Positions 5,909 through 28,673 of a DNA stretch of 29,248 nt are shown here, one piece after another. Under the pieces are notes generated by a model that had not been told where the DNA came from, made no database searches, and saw nothing but the letters and a program-made list of their open reading frames with translations. Source of the stretch: Jaenimonas drosophilae (lineage: Eukaryota; Euglenozoa; Kinetoplastea; Trypanosomatida; Trypanosomatidae); NCBI GenBank assembly GCA_030849065.1, contig JASAON010001446.1, positions 1 to 29,248 of the forward strand, in the 5' to 3' direction. Positions within the stretch are counted from its first letter, which is position 1. Every line of letters starts with the position of its first letter. The translations under genes were made by a program, and so were the position numbers.

Positions 5909-7285
5909 CTAAATGACATAATCGTTTGGCTCTGCATCCACCACAGTGGATTGTGCTTGCCGCATATTTCGAAGCTTTGCATCATAGGATTCCAGACATC
6001 GCATGAACCCTTCATTGGGTTGAGCAGCTGGTCTCGCAGAACGGACCGTTGCTAGCGCCTCTTCAAGGCATTGGTGTTCCGCATACATTAGATAAGCTAC
6101 AGCGATGGAAGCAGATCGAGAAAGGCCAGCAAAGCAATGAACCAGCACCTTTGAACCCTCGTGTCTTGCTGCATCAATGAAATCAAACGCTTCCTTGAAG
6201 CAAGACCCCAGGTCTTCTTCGGGGAAGTCGTTGAGAGGGAGTACCAGATGCTGCATGCCCTCCTCCGTTCGTACCTCCAAGTTACGGCCAACGGTGAGGA
6301 GATGTGTGATGTCCAAATCATGATAGACGGACATGGTTTGAGCCGTACGAAGGGAGCCAAGGTACAAAAAATCAAGCACACGGTCAGGATAGATTTTGTG
6401 GAAGTCCACCACGAGCCATGGCGCACGTTCAGCCCAGTCTTCTTCAGCCACCTGCGAGACAAGACGTGGGCGGTTGTCTAAGGTGACGTGCACCCTTCGA
6501 CCCACCTCGCCATCCTCGTAGGCCCAAGCTGCTGGGGAGTCCATCAAGAGATCAAATGGAATGGGATCGTCTAGCATCGAAGAGTTCTGTCCCAGGAACA
6601 CATCCTGGATATCCGCACACACCAAGAAGAACTCCACTGGAAATCGTTCCAACTGATTCCAATCCAGCCCAACACGTCGCAGTTTAGGCAAGATCTCCTC
6701 CACAGGTACTTCCGGGTCATCAAGGGGAGGAAAAGGAATATCACGGAGGTAGTTGTGGTTCAGCTGGAGAACCTCCAACGATGGAAGAAACAAGAGTGTC
6801 TCTGGAATATCCACGAGTTGATTCGAGTTCACGTCGAGCTCACGAAGATGAGGACAGTGCTCGCGGCAGAACACATCCTCTGGCAGAAAGGTGAGGCCAT
6901 TGTCGGACAGTCGAAGCACCACTAAAGTTTGTATGGGCAGCCCATCGGGGAGGTTGGTAAGCTGCAGGGCCGAAAGGTTGCAGTCATGGGAGGTCCTGCT
7001 AATTTCCAGCTCGGAGGCTAGCTCTAGTTCAGTGTCTTCGCTATCTGGAAGAACAACTTTGCGTTTTCCGTGGCAATCCAACGATGCCGCGGTGGGATCG
7101 CTTGAGTGATCGGTGCGGCCGCTTCGGGGAGATGAGGACGACTCGCTGGACGTAGATGATGAGGCAAAAGATGAGTTTGACTCCAGTGTTACGGAGGGAA
7201 AATCCAGATGCCACACAGCCGAGCCCATTCTTTCTGAGCTGGAGGGCTTCAGTCCACGAGGTTCAAGAATTGATTCTCCTTCCAT
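5909..7285 (-). CDS. Leucine-rich-repeat dual-specificity protein phosphatase
   Basis: The 458-residue protein couples leucine-rich repeats to a dual-specificity phosphatase. Residues about 10-85 are Ser/Asp/Glu-rich and probably disordered. LRRs run from about 103 to 235 (LRLSDNGLTFLPEDVF, LRELDVNSNQLVDIPETL, LEVLQLNHNYLRDIPFPPL, VGLDWNQLERFPVEF). The phosphatase domain spans about 300-440 with the P-loop VHCFAGLSRSAS: nucleophile Cys384, phosphate-binding Arg390, and the general-acid loop LPLNDFPEED with Asp353. All catalytic residues are present, so it should be active on phosphotyrosine or phosphothreonine/serine substrates. LRR-DSP combinations are known from the kinetoplastid phosphatase set. 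ATG at 7285 was chosen because the AG at 7328-7327 precedes it; an upstream GTG frame extension with a poly-Val run comes from the (GTT)n leader repeat. Confidence 0.9.
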   Translation of the reverse strand: MEGESILEPRGLKPSSSERMGSAVWHLDFPSVTLESNSSFASSSTSSESSSSPRSGRTDHSSDPTAASLDCHGKRKVVLPDSEDTELELASELEISRTSHDCNLSALQLTNLPDGLPIQTLVVLRLSDNGLTFLPEDVFCREHCPHLRELDVNSNQLVDIPETLLFLPSLEVLQLNHNYLRDIPFPPLDDPEVPVEEILPKLRRVGLDWNQLERFPVEFFLVCADIQDVFLGQNSSMLDDPIPFDLLMDSPAAWAYEDGEVGRRVHVTLDNRPRLVSQVAEEDWAERAPWLVVDFHKIYPDRVLDFLYLGSLRTAQTMSVYHDLDITHLLTVGRNLEVRTEEGMQHLVLPLNDFPEEDLGSCFKEAFDFIDAARHEGSKVLVHCFAGLSRSASIAVAYLMYAEHQCLEEALATVRSARPAAQPNEGFMRCLESYDAKLRNMRQAQSTVVDAEPNDYVI

Positions 7286-12126: not shown

Positions 12127-15100
12127 TCACGCCTCGTCCTCGGTGTTCAAGACGGCACACCCAAGCGCACCAAGGTAGCCATCATGTTCGAGGAAGTGCG
12201 CGTGGTACTCACCCCCTGACCAGTACTGCATCGCAGTGCTAATCAGAGACCACACAATTGGATTATCACGCACAAAACCACCGGTGAAGAAGACGTTGCG
12301 CACGCCATGAACGCGGCTGTGGAGGTAGGCCAACTGGGTCACATTGACGGCAATCATGTTGAGCAGAGATCGAACGATGTCGATGGAGGTTGCGTTCCCA
12401 ACAGCGGCCTCAGCGTTGACGGAAAAGGTTCGGTTGGTCGGATTGGACCTGGGCGAGAGCACCACCCCGTTGTCCTCGGCGGCGAAGTGTTCTGATGCGG
12501 TGCGCGGCACCTCGGAGAGGCGGCGGTCTACACCAAACTTTCCAAATGAGCTGGCCACCGTCTCGCAGGAAAGCATTGCGGGGAGGTCCTTGGCGTTGTA
12601 GCCGTAGATGTCACCCACGAGAAGATCCACATTCTTGTTGTCACCTGGGCCGTCAAGACGCATAATCTCCATCACCTCCTCCCAGGAGGTGAGGCTCGTC
12701 ATCTTGCGAATCAAACCCCAAAAGGTTGCCCCTCCAATGGGCGAGCCCCCGACACGCACATGAGATCCATCCGGGCCCAGGCACTTGATGAAGGAAATAC
12801 CCGAGCCCATGTTGAAGACGAGGTACGGGAAGGGCGAGAAGCCATCTCCAGAGCTCACGAGCTTGTGTGGTAGATGGGTTCCCGTCGTGGGCTCCACCGT
12901 GAAGATAGACTCTGCGGCGAGCTGGATAATGAGGTTCAGGCCCTTGATGACCGCGTCCATCTCCTTCACCACCTCCAGCTTAACCCCAAGGGTACGTCGG
13001 GCGAGGTTGGCGTACTTGAAGGCACCACCACCGGTAGCTCGAATGCTCTGCACGCATTCATCCTTGTAGGTGTGTACGAGCTGCTCACGCGCAAGGAACT
13101 CGGCCATTTGCGGAATATGGCTGGAGGGAATCTTGGCGAAGTGTAGGGTTCCTGTGCGGGATTTTGGGTTCTGCTGCAGCTCCTTCTCTGCCGCTTCACG
13201 GTCCCGAAAGAAGCGGAACGAACGCACGCCAAGTCGCTCTGAGAGTGAGGAAGCCTCCCGGACGAAGAATGTTGGCAGTTTGAGGTCATGCGCACCAGGT
13301 GGGGTGATGTACGTGATCTTAGCGAAGGTGCCGCCAATGTCGATGGTGATGGGGACGCGAAGCTCGCGCAACTTCCGCTCCAAAGGGTGGGAGCTAGTGG
13401 AGCACTCTCCCTCGCTGAGATTGTCATCGGTGAGGCCAGGGCTCACGCTGTTGCCACCATCTTCATATAGCCGGCTGAAGACAGAGGCGAAGTAACGGCT
13501 CACATCCCCACGACGAATCTTCCCATAGGGTGTCAAGAAGGTAAGGTGATCGCGAAAAGCATGTGGATGCAAGTGAACCAAGGATGGTATCTGCGATGGG
13601 TGGAGCTTCTGCTCCGCTGCGATGCACTTCAGGTCCTCCATAATCACGTCGGTGGCGTAGTGAACGAGGTCCGTCCAGCTGAGCGCTTTGTTTCCCTTTG
13701 ACTGATCGTGTTCCTGCATCCACTCAAACTCCACCGTATCCCGATTGGGGTTGACCACGACGATGATGGGCTTCAACGCATCGCAGTGAACGAAGACGTC
13801 ATTGACGTAACGTGAGGAAGCAAAGCTACGCTCCAGCTCTGAGGCAATGGCGTACTCATACTCTACGGGCCACAGAACTCCTTGTGGGGGGCCGAGGAAG
13901 GTCAAGGTCCGGTCGGTAGTCTCCCACTTGGCGGCAACCTCCAGCAACTGCTCCTTCTCATCTCGGTGAATGACGAGCTCCCCCAGGCCCGATTTCTCTG
14001 AGAGTTCGTTAAAACACCGAAGCTGTACGCGCAAGTTGGGTGCGGGGGCTCCATCAATGGTGCATACGCCCACTGTGTGAAGATAGCTCACCTCACGCAC
14101 CACAGGAGCGTAGCAGACGGCGATGTGCTCCACCAAGTAGAAGGGCGTACTCTCCTGGGCGGTGTTGAGCACAATGCGCCGAACCGCCCCACCCAGTTGC
14201 TGCGCAAAGGAGCGGAAGAAGAGGTAGCGCAGGATTTCTGAGTCTCTCCCTTGGACAAAAATGAGGTACGAACGGAGTTGGAAGACTCGATCAGCCAGCC
14301 AACGCGGAAGTCGGTATCCACGATCCTTGGAGCGCCGGTGTTGGACGTAGCTCGTGCTGAAGAGAGATGGAGATGCCACCAGCAACGTGGGCTGCACACG
14401 CTCCAGCGTCTCTTGGAGATGGGATGAGTCAGAGGTGGCCACTGAATGGCCGTAGGAGAGGAGGCCAAAGACGCACATGCGGTTGAAGAGTGAGGCGAAC
14501 GGAGAGTACCACAGCATCCGCTCCTTTACCGAGCCATCCGGCAGCACCTCCGTCCGTCGTAGCACCTCCAAGTCGCGTAGCACATCGCCGTGCGTGACGG
14601 GCACCAGGTTGAGTAAGTCGGAGGTGGACACGTTGTCCATCGTCATGGAAAAGAGTGTGGCATCGGTAAGGCGTGGGAAGGCTGGACGCGCGGCACTGCG
14701 GCCCTTTAGCTCCACAGAGCTGCTTGGGATGAGGGTGATACTCAGGCCCACAGCCTGCTGGACGTCCTCCTCGTCCAGGGTTGACCCGACGGTGATGACC
14801 GTCTCGAGACTGGTAGAGCGGCAGTTGAGGAGAATAGGTACAGAACTTCGTCCAGCAAAGACAACGTGGATGTTGTGCTGATCCAGCAACGTACGAATTG
14901 TCGTACGTTTACCGGAGAGTGGAACTGTGACGTACCCGTACAAGATGCAGGCGAGATCGAGGATGGCGGCATCCTCACTCGCCTCACACTCCACCCCAAT
15001 TAGGCTCCCGGCTGTTAGACCCAGCGCGGCGAGGCCGGCACCAAAATGCCTCGCCCGCTTGTCCACCGCATCGAAGCTCATCCACTCAACCGAGCCCACC

Positions 15101-16518
15101 TCACGTGCGGAGCCGATACACGGGCTCCCACGGAAGCTTGATACTGCGTGGAGCCACATCTCCTGCAGCGAGGCGTACTGCCGTCCAGACACCTCCGCCG
15201 ACTTGCTTGAAGCGCCAGTCGTTGGAATGGTGGTTTCTGCACGTCCCGCCACCACCTCATCCGTCACAATGGGAGCACGTCTGCTGAAGATGACGCGGGT
15301 TGTGGTTCGATATCGTGTGTATTGAAAAATGGCAGCAGCAATGGCGATGATGCACACCTGCAACCAGTTGGCTGAGAGTGCCAACCAAGCCACGATGGAA
15401 GCAAGAAAGACCTCCATGTGAACGTTGGAAGATGGGTTGCTGAGCTCATGATGGGCGCTTTCAACAAAGGATGGAAGTTGAAGACGAGAGGGTGATCTCG
15501 GTAGGAGAGCGTGTTGGCCGGCTGGATTGAGGGCGATGGTGGTGGCGATGCCAAAGTGGTCCGAGAGGTAAGTGTAGGGACGACGGCTGCCAACCACAAA
15601 CTTCTCCATACGTGCGTCAATTGGAAGAACGGCTTCGTTGTAGAGAAGATAATCCTGGCACTGCGGAGTAGTCTCGTACTTTTCCAGACGAGATTGAGTA
15701 GGGAAAAAGCGGTTTGGTGGACGCGTGGGGAGGTGCGTGCCCAAGGTGCAAAATACTACATCCTGCACGTTGCCGAGCGACTGGAGCTCCGTCATGAAGT
15801 CGTTCAGCTTCGTGGTCAGTTTGGCATTATTTGCATCAATTCCGTGGATGTTGAAGTCCCCAGAAACCACAAAGGGTGTGTTGGAGAAGCTGGAGTTGGT
15901 GTCGTCATCATTGCGGTAGGAGAGCTGGCCCAGAACTGTCTTCATGCACTGTTTTAGCTGAAAAACCTGTGAAGAGTGGGTTGGGGAGCTCTCCTCAGGA
16001 CGCATATGAACGTTGAAGAAGAGCACACGTTGATTCATGGATGGCGTGCCCTTGGACGGAACCTCAATCTCCGCAAAGAGGCATCCTTTTGGCGCGCTGG
16101 CATCTCCACGAGTGCTTTTATGGCGAAATGTGTATGAGCCGCGGTGCCAAATGGGAAACCGTGAGGCAATCACGAGACCACTATCTGATACCACACCCAC
16201 GCGCATCATCGTCTGATAGGACGGCTGGCGGGAGATGGCATAGTAGGGAAAGCCCTTGGCCTTGAGGCCATCCAGGAGCATCTTTTGATAGCAAAACCGC
16301 TTCTGCAATGCATAGGGGAATATACTCGTGGCGTACACCTCTTGAAGCAAAACCACGTCGTACTTGTCCACGGCAGACAAAAAGGTATCGATACGCTCAT
16401 GCTGGTACCCGCCGCAGCCACGTGGAAGGATGTTGAAGTTGTAACTGAGCACACGAACCTTGGCTTCATGTCCCACGTCGTCGCTCAGCGTGCTCTCGCT
16501 CTTCAAATCCACGTCCAT
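12127..16518 (-). CDS. Multidomain fusion: sphingomyelinase-like phosphodiesterase, membrane segment, acyl-CoA-synthetase-like domain, type II pantothenate kinase
   Basis: One open frame of 1463 codons carries four modules. Residues 20-335 are an endonuclease/exonuclease/phosphatase fold of the neutral-sphingomyelinase type with the expected active-site set: Asn27 or Asn29, Glu60 (LLQEVY), His171 (FNVHMRP), Asp221/Asn223 (SGDFNI) and Asp320-His321 (LSDHFG). A hydrophobic stretch at 368-398 could give one or two membrane spans, as in ISC-type sphingolipid phospholipases. Residues about 447-1017 resemble long-chain acyl-CoA synthetases (AMP-binding), ending in LTPYGKIRRGDVSRYF with Lys1000, but the SGTTGxPKG and TGD motifs are degraded. 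Residues 1055-1463 are a complete type II (fumble) pantothenate kinase: IDIGGTFAK, ATGGGAFK, catalytic Glu1186 in KEMDAVIKGL, NMGSGIS, GGATFWGL and EHDGYLGALG. The kinase would make 4'-phosphopantothenate, the first step to CoA. I recall, unverified, long trypanosomatid proteins annotated as pantothenate kinase subunit; this may be their relative. ATG at 16518 follows an acceptor at 16542-16541. Confidence 0.92.
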   Translation of the reverse strand: MDVDLKSESTLSDDVGHEAKVRVLSYNFNILPRGCGGYQHERIDTFLSAVDKYDVVLLQEVYATSIFPYALQKRFCYQKMLLDGLKAKGFPYYAISRQPSYQTMMRVGVVSDSGLVIASRFPIWHRGSYTFRHKSTRGDASAPKGCLFAEIEVPSKGTPSMNQRVLFFNVHMRPEESSPTHSSQVFQLKQCMKTVLGQLSYRNDDDTNSSFSNTPFVVSGDFNIHGIDANNAKLTTKLNDFMTELQSLGNVQDVVFCTLGTHLPTRPPNRFFPTQSRLEKYETTPQCQDYLLYNEAVLPIDARMEKFVVGSRRPYTYLSDHFGIATTIALNPAGQHALLPRSPSRLQLPSFVESAHHELSNPSSNVHMEVFLASIVAWLALSANWLQVCIIAIAAAIFQYTRYRTTTRVIFSRRAPIVTDEVVAGRAETTIPTTGASSKSAEVSGRQYASLQEMWLHAVSSFRGSPCIGSAREVGSVEWMSFDAVDKRARHFGAGLAALGLTAGSLIGVECEASEDAAILDLACILYGYVTVPLSGKRTTIRTLLDQHNIHVVFAGRSSVPILLNCRSTSLETVITVGSTLDEEDVQQAVGLSITLIPSSSVELKGRSAARPAFPRLTDATLFSMTMDNVSTSDLLNLVPVTHGDVLRDLEVLRRTEVLPDGSVKERMLWYSPFASLFNRMCVFGLLSYGHSVATSDSSHLQETLERVQPTLLVASPSLFSTSYVQHRRSKDRGYRLPRWLADRVFQLRSYLIFVQGRDSEILRYLFFRSFAQQLGGAVRRIVLNTAQESTPFYLVEHIAVCYAPVVREVSYLHTVGVCTIDGAPAPNLRVQLRCFNELSEKSGLGELVIHRDEKEQLLEVAAKWETTDRTLTFLGPPQGVLWPVEYEYAIASELERSFASSRYVNDVFVHCDALKPIIVVVNPNRDTVEFEWMQEHDQSKGNKALSWTDLVHYATDVIMEDLKCIAAEQKLHPSQIPSLVHLHPHAFRDHLTFLTPYGKIRRGDVSRYFASVFSRLYEDGGNSVSPGLTDDNLSEGECSTSSHPLERKLRELRVPITIDIGGTFAKITYITPPGAHDLKLPTFFVREASSLSERLGVRSFRFFRDREAAEKELQQNPKSRTGTLHFAKIPSSHIPQMAEFLAREQLVHTYKDECVQSIRATGGGAFKYANLARRTLGVKLEVVKEMDAVIKGLNLIIQLAAESIFTVEPTTGTHLPHKLVSSGDGFSPFPYLVFNMGSGISFIKCLGPDGSHVRVGGSPIGGATFWGLIRKMTSLTSWEEVMEIMRLDGPGDNKNVDLLVGDIYGYNAKDLPAMLSCETVASSFGKFGVDRRLSEVPRTASEHFAAEDNGVVLSPRSNPTNRTFSVNAEAAVGNATSIDIVRSLLNMIAVNVTQLAYLHSRVHGVRNVFFTGGFVRDNPIVWSLISTAMQYWSGGEYHAHFLEHDGYLGALGCAVLNTEDEA

Positions 16519-20281: not shown

Positions 20282-22228
20282 TTAAATGTAGTAGCCTTCT
20301 GCCGTTCTTGGACGAATCTCCTCTGCCGAGACCACCTCCGTTTCTGTGCGTTCAATCTTGTTGGTGAATGTACGTCCATCGAAACACTTGGGGACGATAG
20401 AGACCAGATGCACCGGCTGATCAATGCCTTTGAGGGAAGCGAGGCCAACATCAGATACAGAGATGAAGCAATCCAAACCACGATCGTCCAGCTTTACACT
20501 AGGCGAGGGTATCTCCAGTGAGCGCAGCACACCAGGGCACGGCTCACGATGAAACTCTGGAATGAGCTTCAAGGATTCGTAACTTTCTTTAGACATGAGA
20601 ATTTGCCCGCCGCAGGAGGCAGCCTCAATACGTGCACAGCGGTTTACACTTGGGCCGTAGTAGTCATACCGACGATGAATGGTATCGTAGGTGGCTGTGG
20701 CTTCGGTGCAGTGTTCTACACCAATACGTACACGCAGCGTCGTATCATCCCAGGCTTTGGGGTCTCCGCCACCTTGTGTCTCGTCGACCATCTTGAAGTT
20801 TGGAGCAATGGGGGCCATGCGCATCAACACCAGCTGAATGGAGAGCGCAATCTCCAACCCCACGAGCACATTCTTCGCGGCAATAATAAATGAATCGCCC
20901 ACAGTCTTCACCTCATAGGCGCCGTATTCAGCAATCAAGCCGCGAATGAGACGATGGTGCTGCTTCACGGCCGCCCCCATTGAATCGGAGTCCTTTTGCC
21001 ACAGATTAGTGCTGGACTCAATGTCTGTAAACAAGAGACAGAAGGCTTCGTTGTTACTAGGTGCACGTTTGTTGGCCACGCTGTTGATGCCACTCGCCAT
21101 GCCCGTGGCAATGCCGTTGACCATGTACTCAAACGCCCACTTGAAGCGGTGCTCCATGGGAGGATTCCACTCCTCGGACAAAAAACGTTTGCACGTCAAG
21201 ACAAATGGCTGAGTAAAGGCCTTTAGGTTTTCTAGAGAAACGTTGTAGGCAACGTGGCGCGCACCGAGCTCCTCCATGTACTCCTTGGAGCGCTCACGAT
21301 CCAACAAGTTACCCACGATATCAACAAATGACTGAAACACACGATTGGCAGATCGTAAATCGTTGAGAGCATCGAATTTAGAGAGATCCCCACACATTTC
21401 CATCGCAATTGCGTACATGGTACCTACAAACTGCTGTCGTCCACTAAGACGGTCTTGGCGTTCCTTGAGAATTTTGAAGTCACTCTGTAACGCCCGAAGA
21501 GTGGCCTCACGATGCTGCTCACCAAGTCGATCACCTTCCAGACTATTGCACCCATGCTCCACCTGACTAAGAAGGGTGGTCCAGAAGCTGTTCCACTCCT
21601 CTTCAGACTGCTCGTACACCCTCTTGCCCACAAACTTTGGGAAGAACTTGAAGAAGGACTCCTTCAAATGAACAAAGGTTTCAAAGGTAACGCCGTGCTT
21701 TCGATGGCGAGCCCCGGCCTTGGTCAGGATGTCGAGCGACACCTGTGGTTTTTCGTAGAAGTGAACGGCGGTGGCCAACATGCGCATCAACGCCCGTGGC
21801 TGTTCATCTGGATCAATGCCAAAAAAGAGTACTTGCATGGGGACCTCCTTCATCATCATGTCGTGGTACACTGCCCGACCAAAGTCATCGAGAACACCCT
21901 TCTTCGTCAGGCAAAGCCAGGTTACCTCTACGGTGTACTGTGTTTTCTTGATGATTTTCTTCAAGTTTTCTAGCTCTCGGGTGAGAAGCGTTAGGTCCTC
22001 CAAATCAGCTTTGGAAATACTCGATCCACCTTTGCGTTGACGTTGGCGAAGTTGTTCCGAAGCTGCCATAAGTGAATCATGAAAGTAGTTGGTCAGTCCA
22101 TCCTGATGCTCCCGAAAGTCTCCGGAGCAATCCTCCGAAGCCGGTGGATCACTTCCAAGCTTCATCCTAGATTGAGAAAAGCTCCGCCCTGCCGGGGGTG
22201 AGTCTCCGCCACCACTTCGACTAGGCAT
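20282..22228 (-). CDS. Soluble adenylate cyclase with two N-terminal globin domains (HemAC-like)
   Basis: The 648-residue protein has no membrane span. Residues about 95-222 form a sensor-type globin: VEVTW, DDFGRAVYHDM, a CD-corner Phe in VLFFGIDPDEQPRALMRML, and AGARHRKHGV with the likely proximal His175. Residues about 248-375 form a second globin with LGARHVAYNV and likely proximal His325, 150 residues later. A class III cyclase catalytic domain follows at about 392-555: metal ligands Asp402 (FTDIESST) and Asp445 (VGDSFII), adenine-specifying Lys441 (EVKTVGD) and Asp522 (YDYYGPSVN), and the transition-state pair Asn529 and Arg533. These favour ATP over GTP. A C-terminal 90-residue tail has no known domain. 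Leishmania HemAC is a globin-coupled, oxygen-responsive soluble adenylate cyclase, so this is probably its counterpart, making cAMP in response to a haem ligand. Class III cyclases work as dimers. ATG at 22228 follows an AG at 22252-22251. Confidence 0.88.
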   Translation of the reverse strand: MPSRSGGGDSPPAGRSFSQSRMKLGSDPPASEDCSGDFREHQDGLTNYFHDSLMAASEQLRQRQRKGGSSISKADLEDLTLLTRELENLKKIIKKTQYTVEVTWLCLTKKGVLDDFGRAVYHDMMMKEVPMQVLFFGIDPDEQPRALMRMLATAVHFYEKPQVSLDILTKAGARHRKHGVTFETFVHLKESFFKFFPKFVGKRVYEQSEEEWNSFWTTLLSQVEHGCNSLEGDRLGEQHREATLRALQSDFKILKERQDRLSGRQQFVGTMYAIAMEMCGDLSKFDALNDLRSANRVFQSFVDIVGNLLDRERSKEYMEELGARHVAYNVSLENLKAFTQPFVLTCKRFLSEEWNPPMEHRFKWAFEYMVNGIATGMASGINSVANKRAPSNNEAFCLLFTDIESSTNLWQKDSDSMGAAVKQHHRLIRGLIAEYGAYEVKTVGDSFIIAAKNVLVGLEIALSIQLVLMRMAPIAPNFKMVDETQGGGDPKAWDDTTLRVRIGVEHCTEATATYDTIHRRYDYYGPSVNRCARIEAASCGGQILMSKESYESLKLIPEFHREPCPGVLRSLEIPSPSVKLDDRGLDCFISVSDVGLASLKGIDQPVHLVSIVPKCFDGRTFTNKIERTETEVVSAEEIRPRTAEGYYI

Positions 22229-22490: not shown

Positions 22491-25400
22491 CTACAGAATT
22501 TGCGAGTCAATGCTGTCGGAGTGAGCCTCACCGAGCTCTTCTACAGTAGGCGAGGCTGGGGCGGTGGTCAGGTTCACACCGCCACCACGTGGAATGAGCT
22601 GCTGGTAGTGCCCACGTAGGCGGTCGAGCACGTCATGATGATCGGCTCCGGGGTTGAAGGTGAGACGGCCATGCTTCACCGCCTCCTCAAAGGTCTCTGA
22701 GGAGCGGAAGTCAATGTTGCGGTGTAATTGAAGGCTGCGGAAGGAGCGGCGAAGCTGTGAGAGGTACACCCGCTCACGAAGTGAACGAGTGGGGTCCGCG
22801 TCAAAGGTCAGCTGAGCCTTGTGCATGCGCCAGAGTGATTGCATGAGTGTGGCACCACGAAGCTTCTGCGTGGACTTGAAGAAGTCGAGCCACAAGCGCG
22901 TTTCTACAGACGAATCTGATGGGAAGCTGAGCTCAAACAGGGCGATTGCCTGGATGAGTCGAAGAGGATGGACGTAAATGGTGGGCACCACAGGCTCTCG
23001 CTGTGGCGTGGGGATAGCCTCGAGTGGGTTCCCTTCACTAGTCTGCTCCTTTGCCGCTGGTGGGAAAACCTCGAGGGATGAAAAGCTGAGTTTGGCAGGG
23101 CCACCAGCCCGGTAGGTGACCCACTGGTCCATGTACTCGTGCACCTGAAGCTGGCGCTTCTCTCGAATCGGGAGGTAGGTGAGAAGTTGCCGCAGGGCAA
23201 ACATAAACCGTCGCTGATTTGCTGGTCGGCAAATGTTAAGCTCCTCCAGCAGGTGTGGTAGCGTCCATAGTGGGATGCCACTCAGAGTGAAGACGTGCCT
23301 CAGCTTTTGGCGTTGCATCTTGAGCCGCACTTGGGGACGCATGTCATCGTGCACCTTTGCCCCCTCTCGCAGAATGGCATCGATGCCACCAAACAAGGTG
23401 TTGTACATGAACTGAGCCTTGGGTGGAAGTGGAACACCGCCACGGAAGGGTACGAGCAGCACCGCAATCACCAAGCCACACGTGGTCGAGAGCAGCACTT
23501 TCCCAATCACTGCCAATGCAAACAGTAATTTGGCACTGGAGTAGTTGTTGGAAATCAGCTCCACAGAGGTACCCGCTGCCATCATATCAAGGGCCACGCT
23601 CGTCGCGTTGTAGGGCTGCCATGCACGGTTCACCACTGCGGGGACGGCGGAGGTGAAAATCTGCCGCACCAACTCATTGAAGGCTTCGTGCCACATGGAG
23701 GGTGTAATGGGTACGTCAGTTGCCGCCACAGCCACATCGCACATGGCGCTCGATGAACCGAAAAAGTAAATCAGAATCGTAATCACGGCAAAGAGGAGGA
23801 GGGAGAACTCTCTAAAGAAGGAGAGGGCGTACTGCCGAGGCGTCAGTCGAAGGATGAAGATGAAGCGCACGCAAATGAAGATGACGGCGTAGTTGTCGGC
23901 TGAGATGAGGCACACATCCTTCTCCATCAAAAGTGTAACCGCTAGTGGAAGGGCAAAGGCGTAGTACAGGAGCTCCATCACCGCCAGTGTCATGAGAATA
24001 GCATCGCCAAGCCAAATATTGAGGCACCGTTCATCCTCATTGAAGCAGTGAATGCGAGTCCAGGTACGTACGCAACGATGCACCGCAGCCGACACGGCAG
24101 CCACCGAGGACAGAAGACCCACCAATGTAAAGAACACTTCCCAGGAAAAGAAGAAGTTGTAGTTCTGCTCATCCCTTGAAAAGACGGTGCTGGAGGGACT
24201 AAAGATGCACCCAAAGACGAGCGAAATCACCAACACACCATTTCCCACCCAGCGGTAGTAGAAGTCGTACCGATGAAATCCAAGCATGGACACGGGGTCC
24301 TCCAAAAGAGGAATCGTGTTGATGAGAAGGCTGCGAGAATTGCGAAGGTTTCCGCCAGACCAGTAGAGATAGGCGATGCAGCTAGACATGCACAACGCCG
24401 GGCAGACCCACCAGCTGAAGATGGAGTAGAGCACGTTCGAGTCCTCCGTGAATTGATGGGCAATGTTGGATCGCACGGCCTCCAGCGACTTACCCGGGTG
24501 GTCAACGTAGTGGGCCTTTACCACCTCCACCACGAAGAAGATCAACCCCACAAGCAGAGCGGGGAGCAAAATACGCACCCCACTATCCAGGTAGGACTCA
24601 AGAAACCGCTGCACCTTCGACAAGGGGAAAACCTGAATTTGGAAGATGCGCAACAGCGATACAAATCGCAGTGCTGCAAAGACGCGCACCGAGCGATCGG
24701 TGGAGAAGCCGATGGCCACTGCGGCCAACAAGGTGGCACAGCTCACGACGGTTAGAACACCGGTGCGGTTGCGGGGAAGAACCACCAGGGCACTTACTAC
24801 ACTCAGGACGTGAACGACGGCGGCCACCACCCGCAAAGAGGACGGACTGTGACTGCTGCTCGTGGATGCCCACAAAAAGGCAAAGGAGGCCAGAGTCAGA
24901 ATGGCGTGTGCGGAGTGCAGGGGGGTGGATCGGGTCCACCTAATAGATGAAATGAAGCACAACTTCCACAGCCAATGATGCTCGTGTCGGCTAGCCTTCA
25001 GGGCGTCATCTAGAGAAAGAAAAGTTCCGGTGCTGACGATTTCGTTCTGTACATGCTCGGTGTTCCTCCCACGTGCGATGAAGGAGGAGTCCTCCACCTC
25101 AACTGGAAACACCGCACTGGGTAAGTGGTGCGAGATGTGAAGATGATCGCACATGTTCAAGTCAATGAAGTGACGAAAGGCAATACGCCAGCGATCGTAG
25201 ACCCACATCTTGGCACGTACGGCCATCTTCACAGGAAGGCCAATAGATAACCGCCAATGACGATACCACGTGGCCCCTTCAATGTAGCTGTCGAGGTACT
25301 CCACCACATCCACGTGAAGGCTGTGAAGGACAAGTCGAAGGAAGCGGCCAATAAAGTTGCCAATGTGTAGCAGTGGGTGCAGCAAAATGGAGAGGAAGAA

Positions 25401-28400
25401 CGGTATGAAGAGCATCTGGCACACGATGATCTCTACGGACACCGCAACAGACTCATCTTTGGCTGCAATGTGCTGAACAATCCAAGCGGGGAGCAGTAAA
25501 TCTCGTATGGAGTGAGCCAAGCAACGCGCGGCACCAATTGCCTTGCTTGGGTGGTTTGCTTCAAACTCGAGATATGCAACGAACGCAATCATCCAAGCCG
25601 TGACGAGAGAGGCTAAGCTGTAGGCGCAGCTCCACATCACCATGCCAGGGATGGTAAGCATAAAGGACCAACCTTCGCACAGTCGCAATGCGCGGAGCGC
25701 AACAAGAGGGAACGCCGCTGGCACAAATCCCACGACGATGCAGAACAAACGGAGGATGAGCGCCACGTAGTGCGTAAAGATGTACTCCATGCGAAGAAAG
25801 TAGATGGATAGCAGAAACTCGACCAGGAGAACCGCGCTGAATATGCCTTCCATCACCTTGTTGTTTGGTTGCACAGCTGACATGATGAGCATAACCAACA
25901 ACACCACATTGGACTCACGGATCGTAGCGGGTCCTGTCCACTGCCGCTCCATCACCTGAATCCCGAAGCTCTTGCGTTCTGTAGCACTTAAGGCCACCTC
26001 AATCACTTCCATATCATGAATCGCGCGCATACCAGGGTCTTCGTTGCGGCAGTCCCATGCCTGGTCAATGGAGTGTGCTAGAGAATCCGCTGTTCTTACA
26101 CGGAGACCTGCACTCGTTGTCTGTGCATTCCCAGCCGAGACGGACTGCTCCACGTTGCGAACAAACCGCTGGACGCCATCCCGCCCACGGCGGTCGTACT
26201 GAGCTGCCTCAAGTGCTTCCTTGGCAGCACGAATGTCATCTGCCCACATGATGCCATCCACCTGCTCACGAAGAGCTTCCATGTTCGGTGCCCGATGGGC
26301 ATCGAGCAGCTCCATCTTGCTCTGATTGCGGAATCGTGCTCGGTTCTTCTTGAGCTTCGTTTCGTCACTGATCTCATAGTGGCTCATGATGGCGCTGTGT
26401 GTACCAAGAAAGGTGGCTGCCCAGGGATAGATGAGCAAAAATGCATTGCAGATGGCCACCTGTGCAATGGGAATACGAAAGCGTTGAAGCACGTAGTCCC
26501 CCAAGACGTGGAACTCTGCCTTGGTGTACCGAACATGAAAGACGGGTGAGTCGGGGAGCTCGTCTGCTGCTCTTGGCGTGTGGGTGAGGATGGTTGCCGC
26601 GTACTGCGGGCTCACTGTGCTCCATAGGTACAGGAAGACGCTACCCCAGTTGCCGTCGCTCGTGACGAGGAGGGAATTCTGTGCGAGGCCACGAACGGAG
26701 GAACCAATCCCGGCAATGGCAAAGGGGAAGAGCAGCACCAAGTAGTAGATGGATCGCATCAGCGCACGGCAGTAGGTTCGAGTACCCGAGTGCTCTGGCA
26801 CGAAGGCCCGCACCACAAAGGGGAACTTGAAGAGTAAGAAGGTCACGGCGATCGCACCGCCGTACTTCACTACAGCTGCGTAAATGAGGGCCCCAACAAT
26901 GAGGCACAAATCAAACACAAGCCAAATATTCCACGGCAGCATCAGGGCAACCACAAACTGTAGGCAAATGATGACGATATCTAGGTCATTGTGTACCCGT
27001 GTAAGGAGAGTCCGTGGAACGATACCAATGTATATCAGCAGAAGTGCGCTGATCACTAATTGAGCCAGCAACACGTACTTTGCATAAAGACCCTTGAGAC
27101 TTTGAACGCGCTCCCAGCGAGAGGGTCGAGGAGGGGTCGGGGGAACCCAGCGCCGTCGATGCAATGCCACCAAAAGATCCTTACAGGCGCAGCAGAAGTT
27201 CTCCCGCCACACGAGGCGAGTCACCGCGTGGAGCACCTCCCTCTTCCGGGACGCCAACTGATTAGAAATGTGCTCCATGATATAGTGATGACGCATTTGA
27301 GCGCTGTAGTGTAGTCGAAGTGCAGAGCAAATCCGGTCTGTAGCCTGCTGGCGCTCAGCTGCAAGAATAATTTGCCGCTGCTGCCATCGGCGTTGAGTAA
27401 ACAGCACAGCATTCCGCAATTGCGTGTAGTGATTTCTCTGCTGAATCCCACGTCTCCAGGCACTGATGGCCGTTGAAGCCTGGTGCCGTCGAGCCTCCGC
27501 CCTTCGTTCACGTTGCACAAATGACCAACGCCTAAAGAACAACTGAATACGGGACGCAGCAGCCACCTTCTCCTCTTCGCGGATCGGTTGTTCTGAGTCA
27601 GCTGTACGCGGAGCCAACAACTCATGCTCCACCATGGCATTGTCCGTCAACTTGGAGGGAGTGTTCCGAGAACTGGTGTGGTCGTAATGTGCAGGCGGGG
27701 TGCGCTCACCACTGCAGACTACATGAGAGCCAATGGGTTNTGTGGCAGCTTCCTTAGCCTGCTGGCGGACCAGTGCACGACGCATATTATAACCACGTGC
27801 AACCCGTTGCAAGAAGAACGCCGCCTGCGTCCTACGCACTTGCTCTTGTTCTAGCAGGCGAAGGTACCGGGTAGTGAACTTAGGCATCACACGGTTCTCA
27901 AAGGCGTCCATCTCTTTTGCAATGATGCCTTGGCGTCGCGCAGCTTCTTTACTAAGCAGGGCAGCCTTTCGATTAACGAAGGTAGTCGTGAGAAGAGCAG
28001 ACTGAAAGCACGTCTTTTGAACGCCAGATCGTGCTTCCTCTTCTTGCTTGAAAAAGCGTTGTCGAGCAAGATACTCCTCGTATCCAAGAGCGTGCAACAC
28101 CTGGGCAAAGAGCGCTGAGCTGCGGTTGCCGTCATGGAGCAGCAGCTGCTTAAGGAGGGGAAGATTGGTGCATTGATGCAGCAGCGCCTCATCGTACACC
28201 GTGTGGCCCTTGGAGTTGATCACATTTAGTGTATCAACAATCTCTTGACTAAGAAAGAGCCACTCCACCAGCTCTGACATGGATGACGCTTCCAGCAAAC
28301 GATTTCTCATCAAGATGTGCATGAAGGTATTGCCCAGCACGTCTTGAGCATCTACAGCGCTGCTGAAAGCACGAACAAGTATCATCAGCACAGCAATCCT

Positions 28401-28673
28401 CTGTGAATGCCGAGCAGCTACATGCAGTGGTGTTTCCCCACGAGCGTTTATCGACCATCGCGTGTAGGGGCGGTGGCGAAGAAGGACTAACAGGCAATCC
28501 GATGCATCATGGGAAGCAGCCACATGCAGCAAGGAGTTTCCCCCACTAACGTCACAGACAACATCGCAGCCATGATCGATTGCCTGGCATAGAGCAGTAA
28601 CATCGTCCCGCTCCACGATTTCTGCGAGAGCAGCCCCATTCTGAGGTTCACGCAGTCGTTCGGCCATCTCCAT
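22491..28673 (-). CDS. Ankyrin-IQ-four-repeat cation-channel-like protein
   Basis: A 2060-residue protein. Residues about 14-150 hold ankyrin repeats (GGNSLLHVAASHDASDCLLVLL, RGETPLHVAARHSQRIAVLMIL, then a weaker GNTFMHILMRN unit). IQ-like calmodulin-binding motifs follow at about 284-301 (FFLQRVARGYNMRRALVR) and 372-392 (SRIQLFFRRW), with more Arg-rich helices to about 490. Four blocks of hydrophobic segments lie at about 530-760, 920-1105, 1250-1440 and 1475-1745, each with S1-S6-like spans and a re-entrant segment before the last span, as in four-domain voltage-gated-type channels. S4-like helices have few, widely spaced Arg (block III: VRVFAALRFVSLLRIF). No Ca- or Na-type selectivity ring is recognisable. 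The C-terminal 315 residues are cytosolic. ATG at 28673 was chosen because an AG at 28788-28787 precedes it and the leader has no other ATG. An ambiguous base at 27740 leaves one residue undefined. Ion and gating are unknown. Confidence 0.75.
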   Translation of the reverse strand: MEMAERLREPQNGAALAEIVERDDVTALCQAIDHGCDVVCDVSGGNSLLHVAASHDASDCLLVLLRHRPYTRWSINARGETPLHVAARHSQRIAVLMILVRAFSSAVDAQDVLGNTFMHILMRNRLLEASSMSELVEWLFLSQEIVDTLNVINSKGHTVYDEALLHQCTNLPLLKQLLLHDGNRSSALFAQVLHALGYEEYLARQRFFKQEEEARSGVQKTCFQSALLTTTFVNRKAALLSKEAARRQGIIAKEMDAFENRVMPKFTTRYLRLLEQEQVRRTQAAFFLQRVARGYNMRRALVRQQAKEAATXPIGSHVVCSGERTPPAHYDHTSSRNTPSKLTDNAMVEHELLAPRTADSEQPIREEEKVAAASRIQLFFRRWSFVQRERRAEARRHQASTAISAWRRGIQQRNHYTQLRNAVLFTQRRWQQRQIILAAERQQATDRICSALRLHYSAQMRHHYIMEHISNQLASRKREVLHAVTRLVWRENFCCACKDLLVALHRRRWVPPTPPRPSRWERVQSLKGLYAKYVLLAQLVISALLLIYIGIVPRTLLTRVHNDLDIVIICLQFVVALMLPWNIWLVFDLCLIVGALIYAAVVKYGGAIAVTFLLFKFPFVVRAFVPEHSGTRTYCRALMRSIYYLVLLFPFAIAGIGSSVRGLAQNSLLVTSDGNWGSVFLYLWSTVSPQYAATILTHTPRAADELPDSPVFHVRYTKAEFHVLGDYVLQRFRIPIAQVAICNAFLLIYPWAATFLGTHSAIMSHYEISDETKLKKNRARFRNQSKMELLDAHRAPNMEALREQVDGIMWADDIRAAKEALEAAQYDRRGRDGVQRFVRNVEQSVSAGNAQTTSAGLRVRTADSLAHSIDQAWDCRNEDPGMRAIHDMEVIEVALSATERKSFGIQVMERQWTGPATIRESNVVLLVMLIMSAVQPNNKVMEGIFSAVLLVEFLLSIYFLRMEYIFTHYVALILRLFCIVVGFVPAAFPLVALRALRLCEGWSFMLTIPGMVMWSCAYSLASLVTAWMIAFVAYLEFEANHPSKAIGAARCLAHSIRDLLLPAWIVQHIAAKDESVAVSVEIIVCQMLFIPFFLSILLHPLLHIGNFIGRFLRLVLHSLHVDVVEYLDSYIEGATWYRHWRLSIGLPVKMAVRAKMWVYDRWRIAFRHFIDLNMCDHLHISHHLPSAVFPVEVEDSSFIARGRNTEHVQNEIVSTGTFLSLDDALKASRHEHHWLWKLCFISSIRWTRSTPLHSAHAILTLASFAFLWASTSSSHSPSSLRVVAAVVHVLSVVSALVVLPRNRTGVLTVVSCATLLAAVAIGFSTDRSVRVFAALRFVSLLRIFQIQVFPLSKVQRFLESYLDSGVRILLPALLVGLIFFVVEVVKAHYVDHPGKSLEAVRSNIAHQFTEDSNVLYSIFSWWVCPALCMSSCIAYLYWSGGNLRNSRSLLINTIPLLEDPVSMLGFHRYDFYYRWVGNGVLVISLVFGCIFSPSSTVFSRDEQNYNFFFSWEVFFTLVGLLSSVAAVSAAVHRCVRTWTRIHCFNEDERCLNIWLGDAILMTLAVMELLYYAFALPLAVTLLMEKDVCLISADNYAVIFICVRFIFILRLTPRQYALSFFREFSLLLFAVITILIYFFGSSSAMCDVAVAATDVPITPSMWHEAFNELVRQIFTSAVPAVVNRAWQPYNATSVALDMMAAGTSVELISNNYSSAKLLFALAVIGKVLLSTTCGLVIAVLLVPFRGGVPLPPKAQFMYNTLFGGIDAILREGAKVHDDMRPQVRLKMQRQKLRHVFTLSGIPLWTLPHLLEELNICRPANQRRFMFALRQLLTYLPIREKRQLQVHEYMDQWVTYRAGGPAKLSFSSLEVFPPAAKEQTSEGNPLEAIPTPQREPVVPTIYVHPLRLIQAIALFELSFPSDSSVETRLWLDFFKSTQKLRGATLMQSLWRMHKAQLTFDADPTRSLRERVYLSQLRRSFRSLQLHRNIDFRSSETFEEAVKHGRLTFNPGADHHDVLDRLRGHYQQLIPRGGGVNLTTAPASPTVEELGEAHSDSIDSQIL

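What the first reader, a model, noticed from the sequence alone, without database searches (positions are those of the whole stretch)
12127..16518. Pantothenate kinase fused to a sphingomyelinase-like phosphodiesterase and an acyl-CoA-synthetase-like domain
A single 1463-codon frame joins a lipid phosphodiesterase-type EEP domain, a membrane segment, an AMP-binding-like domain and a full type II pantothenate kinase. Pantothenate kinases elsewhere are about 300-770 residues and are feedback-regulated by CoA and acyl-CoA. A membrane-tethered fusion to two lipid-linked modules suggests CoA synthesis controlled by, or located next to, lipid turnover. I have an unverified memory of long trypanosomatid proteins annotated as pantothenate kinase subunit, so the architecture may be lineage-wide yet functionally unexplored.
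Basis: partly seen in the sequence, partly recalled or inferred. Interest (0 to 1): 0.8.

Follow-up and report, generated by a model that had tools for sequence, protein, structure and literature searches.

The report
Kinetoplastids' membrane-anchored, three-module pantothenate kinase
In this single-celled flagellate the vitamin-B5 kinase is the tail of a long, probably membrane-anchored protein whose front carries a relative of a lipid-cutting enzyme and a dead relative of a fatty-acid-activating enzyme; trypanosomes, Leishmania and a free-living relative have the same protein, suggesting that making coenzyme A is wired to lipid sensing there.

Summary
Window 12127-16518, minus strand, is one 1463-codon frame: an N-terminal EEP domain of neutral-sphingomyelinase type, a predicted two-helix hydrophobic hairpin, a complete acyl-CoA-synthetase (ANL) fold and a type II pantothenate kinase (PanK). 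It is no assembly join: 38 relatives were found; the 26 that bear an organism name are all kinetoplastids, Bodo saltans included. It is the only PanK match over its cut-off in this genome.

(1) The AMP-binding domain is a pseudoenzyme: the ATP P-loop is absent in 38 of 38 family sequences that cover it (window included), and the A7/A8 motifs in 39 of 39, while acyl-CoA synthetases of the same genome mostly keep them. (2) The EEP active site is complete in 26 of 36 sequences but altered in 10 (five changes on the tree), although the rest of the domain stays conserved. Published L. major data argue against sphingomyelinase activity.

Best reading: two former lipid enzymes now tether and regulate PanK, coupling CoA synthesis to a lipid or acyl ligand. 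Architecture is shown; ligand, regulation and location are inferred. The domain order is already in database annotation; I saw no functional study in the open-licence listings searched.

The parts
12127..16518 (-). complete ORF, 1463 aa, EEP - hairpin - pseudo-acyl-CoA synthetase - pantothenate kinase
15523..16467 (-). EEP domain of neutral-sphingomyelinase type (aa 18-332); catalytic set N27 E60 H171 D221 N223 D289 D320 H321 all present, P-loop-like pair D139/K144 present
15301..15429 (-). predicted two-helix hydrophobic hairpin (aa 364-382 and 385-406), likely membrane anchor
   Evidence: hydropathy and AlphaFold2 model of moderate confidence here
13453..15177 (-). ANL (acyl-CoA synthetase / adenylation) fold without ATP-binding motifs (aa 448-1022): pseudo-acyl-CoA synthetase
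14584..14673 (-). place of the ATP P-loop (A3 motif), aa 616-645, where TSGTTGxPKG is replaced
12151..13353 (-). type II pantothenate kinase (Fumble) domain, aa 1056-1456; D1060, G1062, E1186 and R1255 conserved in 39 of 39
12385..12531 (-). poorly conserved insertion inside the PanK domain (about aa 1330-1378), probably disordered (inference)
   Evidence: unaligned gap between the two PANK1 stretches; mostly non-consensus columns in the family

Best explanation
The protein is the kinetoplastid pantothenate kinase. Its C-terminal type II PanK domain phosphorylates pantothenate (inferred from a complete active site and from being the only PanK match over cut-off in the genome). Its N-terminal part descends from a neutral-sphingomyelinase-like enzyme, EEP domain plus hairpin, whose hairpin fixes the enzyme to a membrane with EEP, ANL and PanK domains all on the cytosolic side. 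The middle domain is an acyl-CoA synthetase that has lost ATP chemistry and most likely now binds an acyl ligand (fatty acid or acyl-CoA), or contacts PanK directly, to set its activity. The EEP domain keeps a conserved body in the members that have it but a complete catalytic site only in some lineages, so its lasting role is probably recognition of a lipid or other phosphoester, with hydrolysis a lineage-dependent addition. SHOWN by sequence or model: order of modules, hydrophobic stretch, loss of ANL motifs, state of EEP catalytic residues, PanK residues, single Fumble match in the assembly. INFERRED: membrane side, ligand binding, regulation of PanK, location in the cell.
Confidence: 0.5

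Rival explanations
1. Scaffold only: hairpin, EEP and ANL folds are inert structure that places PanK on a membrane and holds its dimer, with no ligand sensing.
For: Both appended folds lost catalytic residues, in all members covering them (ANL) or some (EEP); Angomonas P0035 lacks EEP and hairpin.
Against: EEP kept a complete catalytic set in 26 of 36, including the long-branched P0039, and ANL has 69 columns invariant in 25 members; inert spacers of about 1000 residues usually erode (general expectation).
Confidence: 0.22
2. Opposed enzymes, as in human PANK4: the EEP domain hydrolyses a CoA-pathway metabolite or CoA-like phosphoester and so counteracts PanK.
For: PANK4, a PanK domain fused to a DUF89 phosphatase acting on 4'-phosphopantetheine, limits CoA synthesis (PMC9352595, abstract excerpt and passages). 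EEP folds include small-molecule hydrolases such as nocturnin bound to NADPH (row 6nf0). The complete catalytic set is the commonest state and looks ancestral by parsimony.
Confidence: 0.13
3. Trifunctional enzyme: active lipid phosphodiesterase, active acyl-CoA synthetase and PanK channel substrates.
For: Pfam names all three; EEP site complete in the window; A10 lysine K1000 present in the window and in 24 of 39.
Against: ATP P-loop absent in 38 of 38 covering it, and A7/A8 motifs in 39 of 39, while synthetases of the same genome mostly keep them.
Confidence: 0.04
4. A second sphingomyelinase / inositol-phosphosphingolipid hydrolase attached to PanK.
For: Nearest fold and profile matches are SMases; EEP plus two C-terminal helices is the SMPD2/Isc1 plan; the window keeps the D139/K144 pair whose counterparts are essential in Isc1 (D163, K168; PMC4544949 passage; the equation of residues is mine, by spacing).
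Against: L. major lacking ISCL loses all SMase and IPCase activity (PMC2784226, PMC3267774 passages) although Leishmania copies of this EEP are catalytically complete; the D position is E in 16 and D in only 5 of 26 EEP-intact members.
Confidence: 0.06
5. Artefact: a frame or assembly error joins neighbouring genes.
For: None found.
Against: Same order and length in relatives from many sources, no stop or N inside.
Confidence: 0.01

Closest known systems
Database entries 'pantothenate kinase (subunit)' or 'Endonuclease/Exonuclease/phosphatase family/AMP-binding enzyme/Fumble' of trypanosomatids and Bodo saltans
   Same: Direct homologues: 35 of 38 align over 93-99% of the query at 36-56% identity; two (L. 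naiffi, T. vivax) are named after the three domains.
   Different: Annotated only; the pseudoenzyme state of the ANL domain and the repeated EEP changes are not stated in the names seen (names are cut in the listing).
Human PANK1-3 and yeast Cab1 (type II PanK)
   Same: Kinase domain homologous, active-site motifs kept.
   Different: The PDB chains matched (constructs) are 360-386 aa, without EEP, hairpin or ANL modules.
Human PANK4 (PanK domain + DUF89 phosphatase)
   Same: PanK domain joined to a hydrolase on one chain, with one enzyme of the chain degenerated.
   Different: In PANK4 the kinase is dead in amniotes and the hydrolase lives (PMC9352595 passage); here the kinase looks intact, the ANL partner is dead, and the hydrolase is EEP, not DUF89.
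Neutral sphingomyelinase SMPD2 / Isc1 / Leishmania ISCL / TbnSMase
   Same: EEP domain followed by two hydrophobic helices; catalytic residues; best structural match.
   Different: A separate SMPD2 homologue (L002) exists in this genome; ISCL's two helices lie far apart (447-466, 612-634 in PMC3267774), here they are modelled as a tight hairpin; the SMase D/K pair is not kept across the family.
Long-chain acyl-CoA synthetases and carboxylic acid reductase A domains (ANL superfamily)
   Same: Whole fold, both subdomains.
   Different: ATP-binding and adenylation motifs lost.

Membership tests
Type II pantothenate kinase (Fumble) | Pfam Fumble profile over gathering score | tested here: met
   315 bits against 28.5
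Type II pantothenate kinase (Fumble) | NCBIfam equivalog TIGR00555 over its cut-off | tested here: not met
   213.1 bits against 247.6; nearly full-length match, so filed as a divergent Fumble-domain kinase, not as that equivalog
Type II pantothenate kinase (Fumble) | Catalytic Glu, nucleotide-binding DxGGT, conserved Arg (roles recalled from PANK3 work) | tested here: met
   D1060, G1062, E1186 and R1255 in 39 of 39; aligned to PANK1 and Cab1
Type II pantothenate kinase (Fumble) | Phosphorylates pantothenate, feedback by CoA/acyl-CoA | not testable with these tools
   no experiment
Neutral sphingomyelinase / Isc1 family | EEP fold and nSMase-type sequence profile | tested here: met
   fold alone separates SMases from TDP2 by only about 2 Z, so this leans on the sequence profile
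Neutral sphingomyelinase / Isc1 family | EEP catalytic set | tested here: met
   all eight in the window; 26 of 36 sequences
Neutral sphingomyelinase / Isc1 family | P-loop-like D and K five residues apart, across the family | tested here: not met
   window has D139/K144, but D in only 5 of 26 EEP-intact and 0 of 10 altered; K in 16 of 26 and 2 of 10; alignment around this loop is uncertain in some rows
Neutral sphingomyelinase / Isc1 family | Hydrolyses SM or IPC | not testable with these tools
   published ISCL-null data argue against it in Leishmania (passages)
Acyl-CoA synthetase (ANL) | ANL fold | tested here: met
Acyl-CoA synthetase (ANL) | ATP P-loop (A3), TGD (A7), Arg (A8) (motif names recalled) | tested here: not met
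   absent in window and relatives
Acyl-CoA synthetase (ANL) | A10 lysine | tested here: met
   K1000 in the window; 24 of 39 in the family
PANK4-type fusion | DUF89 phosphatase domain on the PanK chain | tested here: not met
   no DUF89 on P0001; the own-genome match lies on another contig

The most novel reading that the evidence does not exclude
Kinetoplastids built a single-chain lipid-to-CoA control device: a membrane-tethered PanK gated by a dead acyl-CoA synthetase that reads free fatty acid or acyl-CoA, and by an nSMase-type EEP domain that in some lineages still cleaves a new, non-sphingolipid phosphodiester and in others only binds it. Former lipid enzymes have become the allosteric inputs of the first step of CoA synthesis.
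Probability: 0.3. Interest if true: 0.78.

Novelty: new variant of a known kind. Interest (0 to 1): 0.56.

Why it matters
PanK is the usual control point of CoA synthesis (established knowledge). In a group that includes major parasites, no other PanK over its cut-off was found in the one genome searched, and the architecture is unlike the human enzymes'. If the dead acyl-CoA synthetase and the EEP domain gate the kinase, this gives a direct, testable link from lipid state to CoA supply, an unusual pair of enzyme-derived regulatory domains on one chain, and a group-specific target distinct from human PANKs. Published work reports compounds acting on T. b. brucei CoA synthesis (PMC5114727, abstract and passages); the 12 of 45 passages shown to me did not discuss the trypanosome PanK's architecture.

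Tried and rejected

Motif checks. A regex P-loop hit in P0024 lies at residue 8, outside the domain; an A8 regex hit in P0033 lies at residue 721, outside that motif's place. Own-genome controls are not perfect: the relaxed P-loop regex matched 10 of the 13 loci L013-L025 (not L022-L024, and not the split frame L026-L028), but 9 of 9 paralogues that I aligned (chosen from those 13) show a loop of this type.TGD occurs in 13 of 13; the A8-type Arg is seen in 7 of the 9 aligned (L017 is gapped there, L023 has S). A10 lysine: 22 of 32 by my reading, 24 of 39 in the larger alignment; the latter is used.

Rows dropped: P0038 (T. rangeli, starts mid-ANL) from the tree and EEP counts; P0020 and P0035 (part or all of the EEP missing) from the EEP counts; P0039 also from the invariant-column count and, with these three, from the identity means. 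P0039 has a very long branch and deviant composition, so its place and its EEP alignment are unsure. Type I PanK profile: three weak matches below cut-off, not followed. PPAT: five CTP_transf_like matches over cut-off on four contigs, not resolved. Diplonemid and euglenid proteomes could not be searched by name; one search scored only the 7,992 candidates sharing most words, so absence there proves little.

Full report
WHAT IS THERE. The reported interval is exact: 12127-16518 on the minus strand is a single ATG-TGA frame of 1463 codons with no inner stop and no N. Pfam places Exo_endo_phos at 42-321, AMP-binding in two stretches (best 475-584) and Fumble at 1057-1455, each over its curated cut-off. 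The window lies in an 18.8 Mb, 370-contig assembly in which Fumble matches once; the type III PanK family gives no match and the bacterial type I profile only three weak ones, best 39 bits against a cut-off of 235. The host is a trypanosomatid by the relatives of this protein: best hit Herpetomonas muscarum, 56% identity over 98%. In the tree its place among the non-Trypanosoma trypanosomatids is unresolved.

NOT AN ARTEFACT. A search of 5.8 billion proteins gave 38 relatives at E <= 0.001 (7,992 candidates scored). Twenty-six bear an organism name, all kinetoplastids, from Leishmania, Trypanosoma, Phytomonas, Strigomonas and Angomonas to the free-living Bodo saltans (36% identity over 98%). 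Twenty of the 26 are called pantothenate kinase in some form; two (L. naiffi, T. vivax) are literally named after the three Pfam domains. Thirty-five of 38 align over 93-99% of the query and 34 are 1445-1597 aa long.

EEP CATALYSIS. Eight catalytic columns were read in a 39-row alignment. Three rows lack some or all of them (P0020, P0035, P0038). Of the other 36, 26 have the full set N-E-H-D-N-D-D-H, the window and P0039 included, and 10 do not: two Phytomonas (D221 to S), T. equiperdum and P0025 (N223 to D), P0027 (E60 to G), P0032-P0034 (D221 to C, T, S; P0032 also D289 to E), and Bodo with its near-twin P0036 (H171 to Y, D221 to N, N223 gone). The tree needs five changes, four of them forced by well-supported branches. 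In L. major ISCL, D200G abolishes activity (PMC3267774, passage); by spacing against L002 (GDFN at 190, SDH at 371) I take D200 to be the same Asp as D221 here (inference). Yet 45 other columns invariant in 25 intact members stay at 9.6 of 10 in the altered ones, 36 of them fully. The altered set was defined by the catalytic columns, so only the retention of the rest is informative. In one clade the EEP diverges about twice as fast as the kinase (ratios 1.8-2.1 for altered pairs, but also 1.75 for an intact pair); in the Phytomonas and Bodo pairs it is slower (0.68, 0.55).

PROBABLY NOT A SPHINGOMYELINASE. In L. [quoted passage not shown] T. brucei likewise was reported to have one nSMase (PMC2904498, passages). 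Leishmania copies of the present EEP have the full catalytic set, so if active they act on something else or under other conditions. The Isc1 residues D163 and K168 are essential (PMC4544949, passage); the counterpart D139/K144 pair is present in the window, but that D is E in 16 and D in only 5 of 26 intact members, and K is R in seven.

KINASE. The PanK domain aligns with yeast Cab1 and human PANK1; D1060, G1062, E1186 and R1255 are present in 39 of 39. It passes Pfam by far but not NCBIfam's equivalog cut-off. CoaE, DFP and Flavoprotein families of the CoA pathway each have their own frame on other contigs; five CTP_transf_like matches exist, of which I did not decide the PPAT.

MECHANISM. 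I think the N-terminal two-thirds is a regulatory and targeting head made of two recruited lipid enzymes. The hairpin tethers PanK; the ANL domain, without ATP chemistry, binds an acyl ligand or the kinase itself; the EEP domain recognises a lipid or other phosphoester, cleaving it only in some lineages. Each of these last steps is inference. The main rivals are a pure scaffold and a PANK4-like opposing hydrolase; PANK4 (PMC9352595, passages) shows that a hydrolase joined to a PanK domain can control CoA synthesis.

NOVELTY. Architecture: known in annotation. In open-licence PMC papers "pantothenate kinase subunit" occurs in 0 papers, Fumble with Trypanosoma in 0, six PanK names for trypanosomes or Leishmania in 0. 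The broader searches list no title or abstract start on this protein in the parts shown: 30 of 34, 15 of 30, 10 of 10, 2 of 2. The 2013 vitamin paper names the enzyme in its pathway figure and does not mention a fusion in the 12 of 13 passages seen (PMC3833962). Subscription journals were not searchable. What I did not see stated elsewhere, and add here: the middle module is dead in all members seen, the EEP is nSMase-type and repeatedly altered at its active site, and the rest of it is retained.

Noticed in passing
window 20282-22228 (-): A 648-aa protein with a globin domain match (294-371) directly before a class III nucleotide cyclase domain (393-558): a globin-coupled cyclase, possibly a gas or redox sensor.
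   Followed up: no
window 22491-28673 (-): A 2060-aa protein with N-terminal ankyrin repeats and, by eye, many hydrophobic segments like a multi-domain cation channel; the translation holds one X, so the sequence has an ambiguous base there.
   Followed up: no
window 5909-7285 (-): Leucine-rich repeats fused to a dual-specificity phosphatase.
   Followed up: no
own genome contig C361, 45853-71678 (L014, L015, L017, L018, L020, L021, L026-L028): Seven AMP-binding frames within about 26 kb, all on one strand: a tandem acyl-CoA synthetase cluster.
   Followed up: partly
P0039 (2344 aa): Alanine-rich protein of unnamed source with the same module order, full EEP catalytic set, no ANL P-loop and a very long branch; may be a deep lineage.
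   Followed up: partly
P0035 (Angomonas deanei, 1004 aa): Starts at the ANL domain with no EEP or hairpin: true loss in this symbiont-bearing genus, or a short gene model.
   Followed up: no
own genome C319, L032-L033: A frame open over 1036 codons with a DUF89/ARMT1-type domain, the family of the PANK4 phosphatase; the genome's only Fumble match is elsewhere.
   Followed up: no
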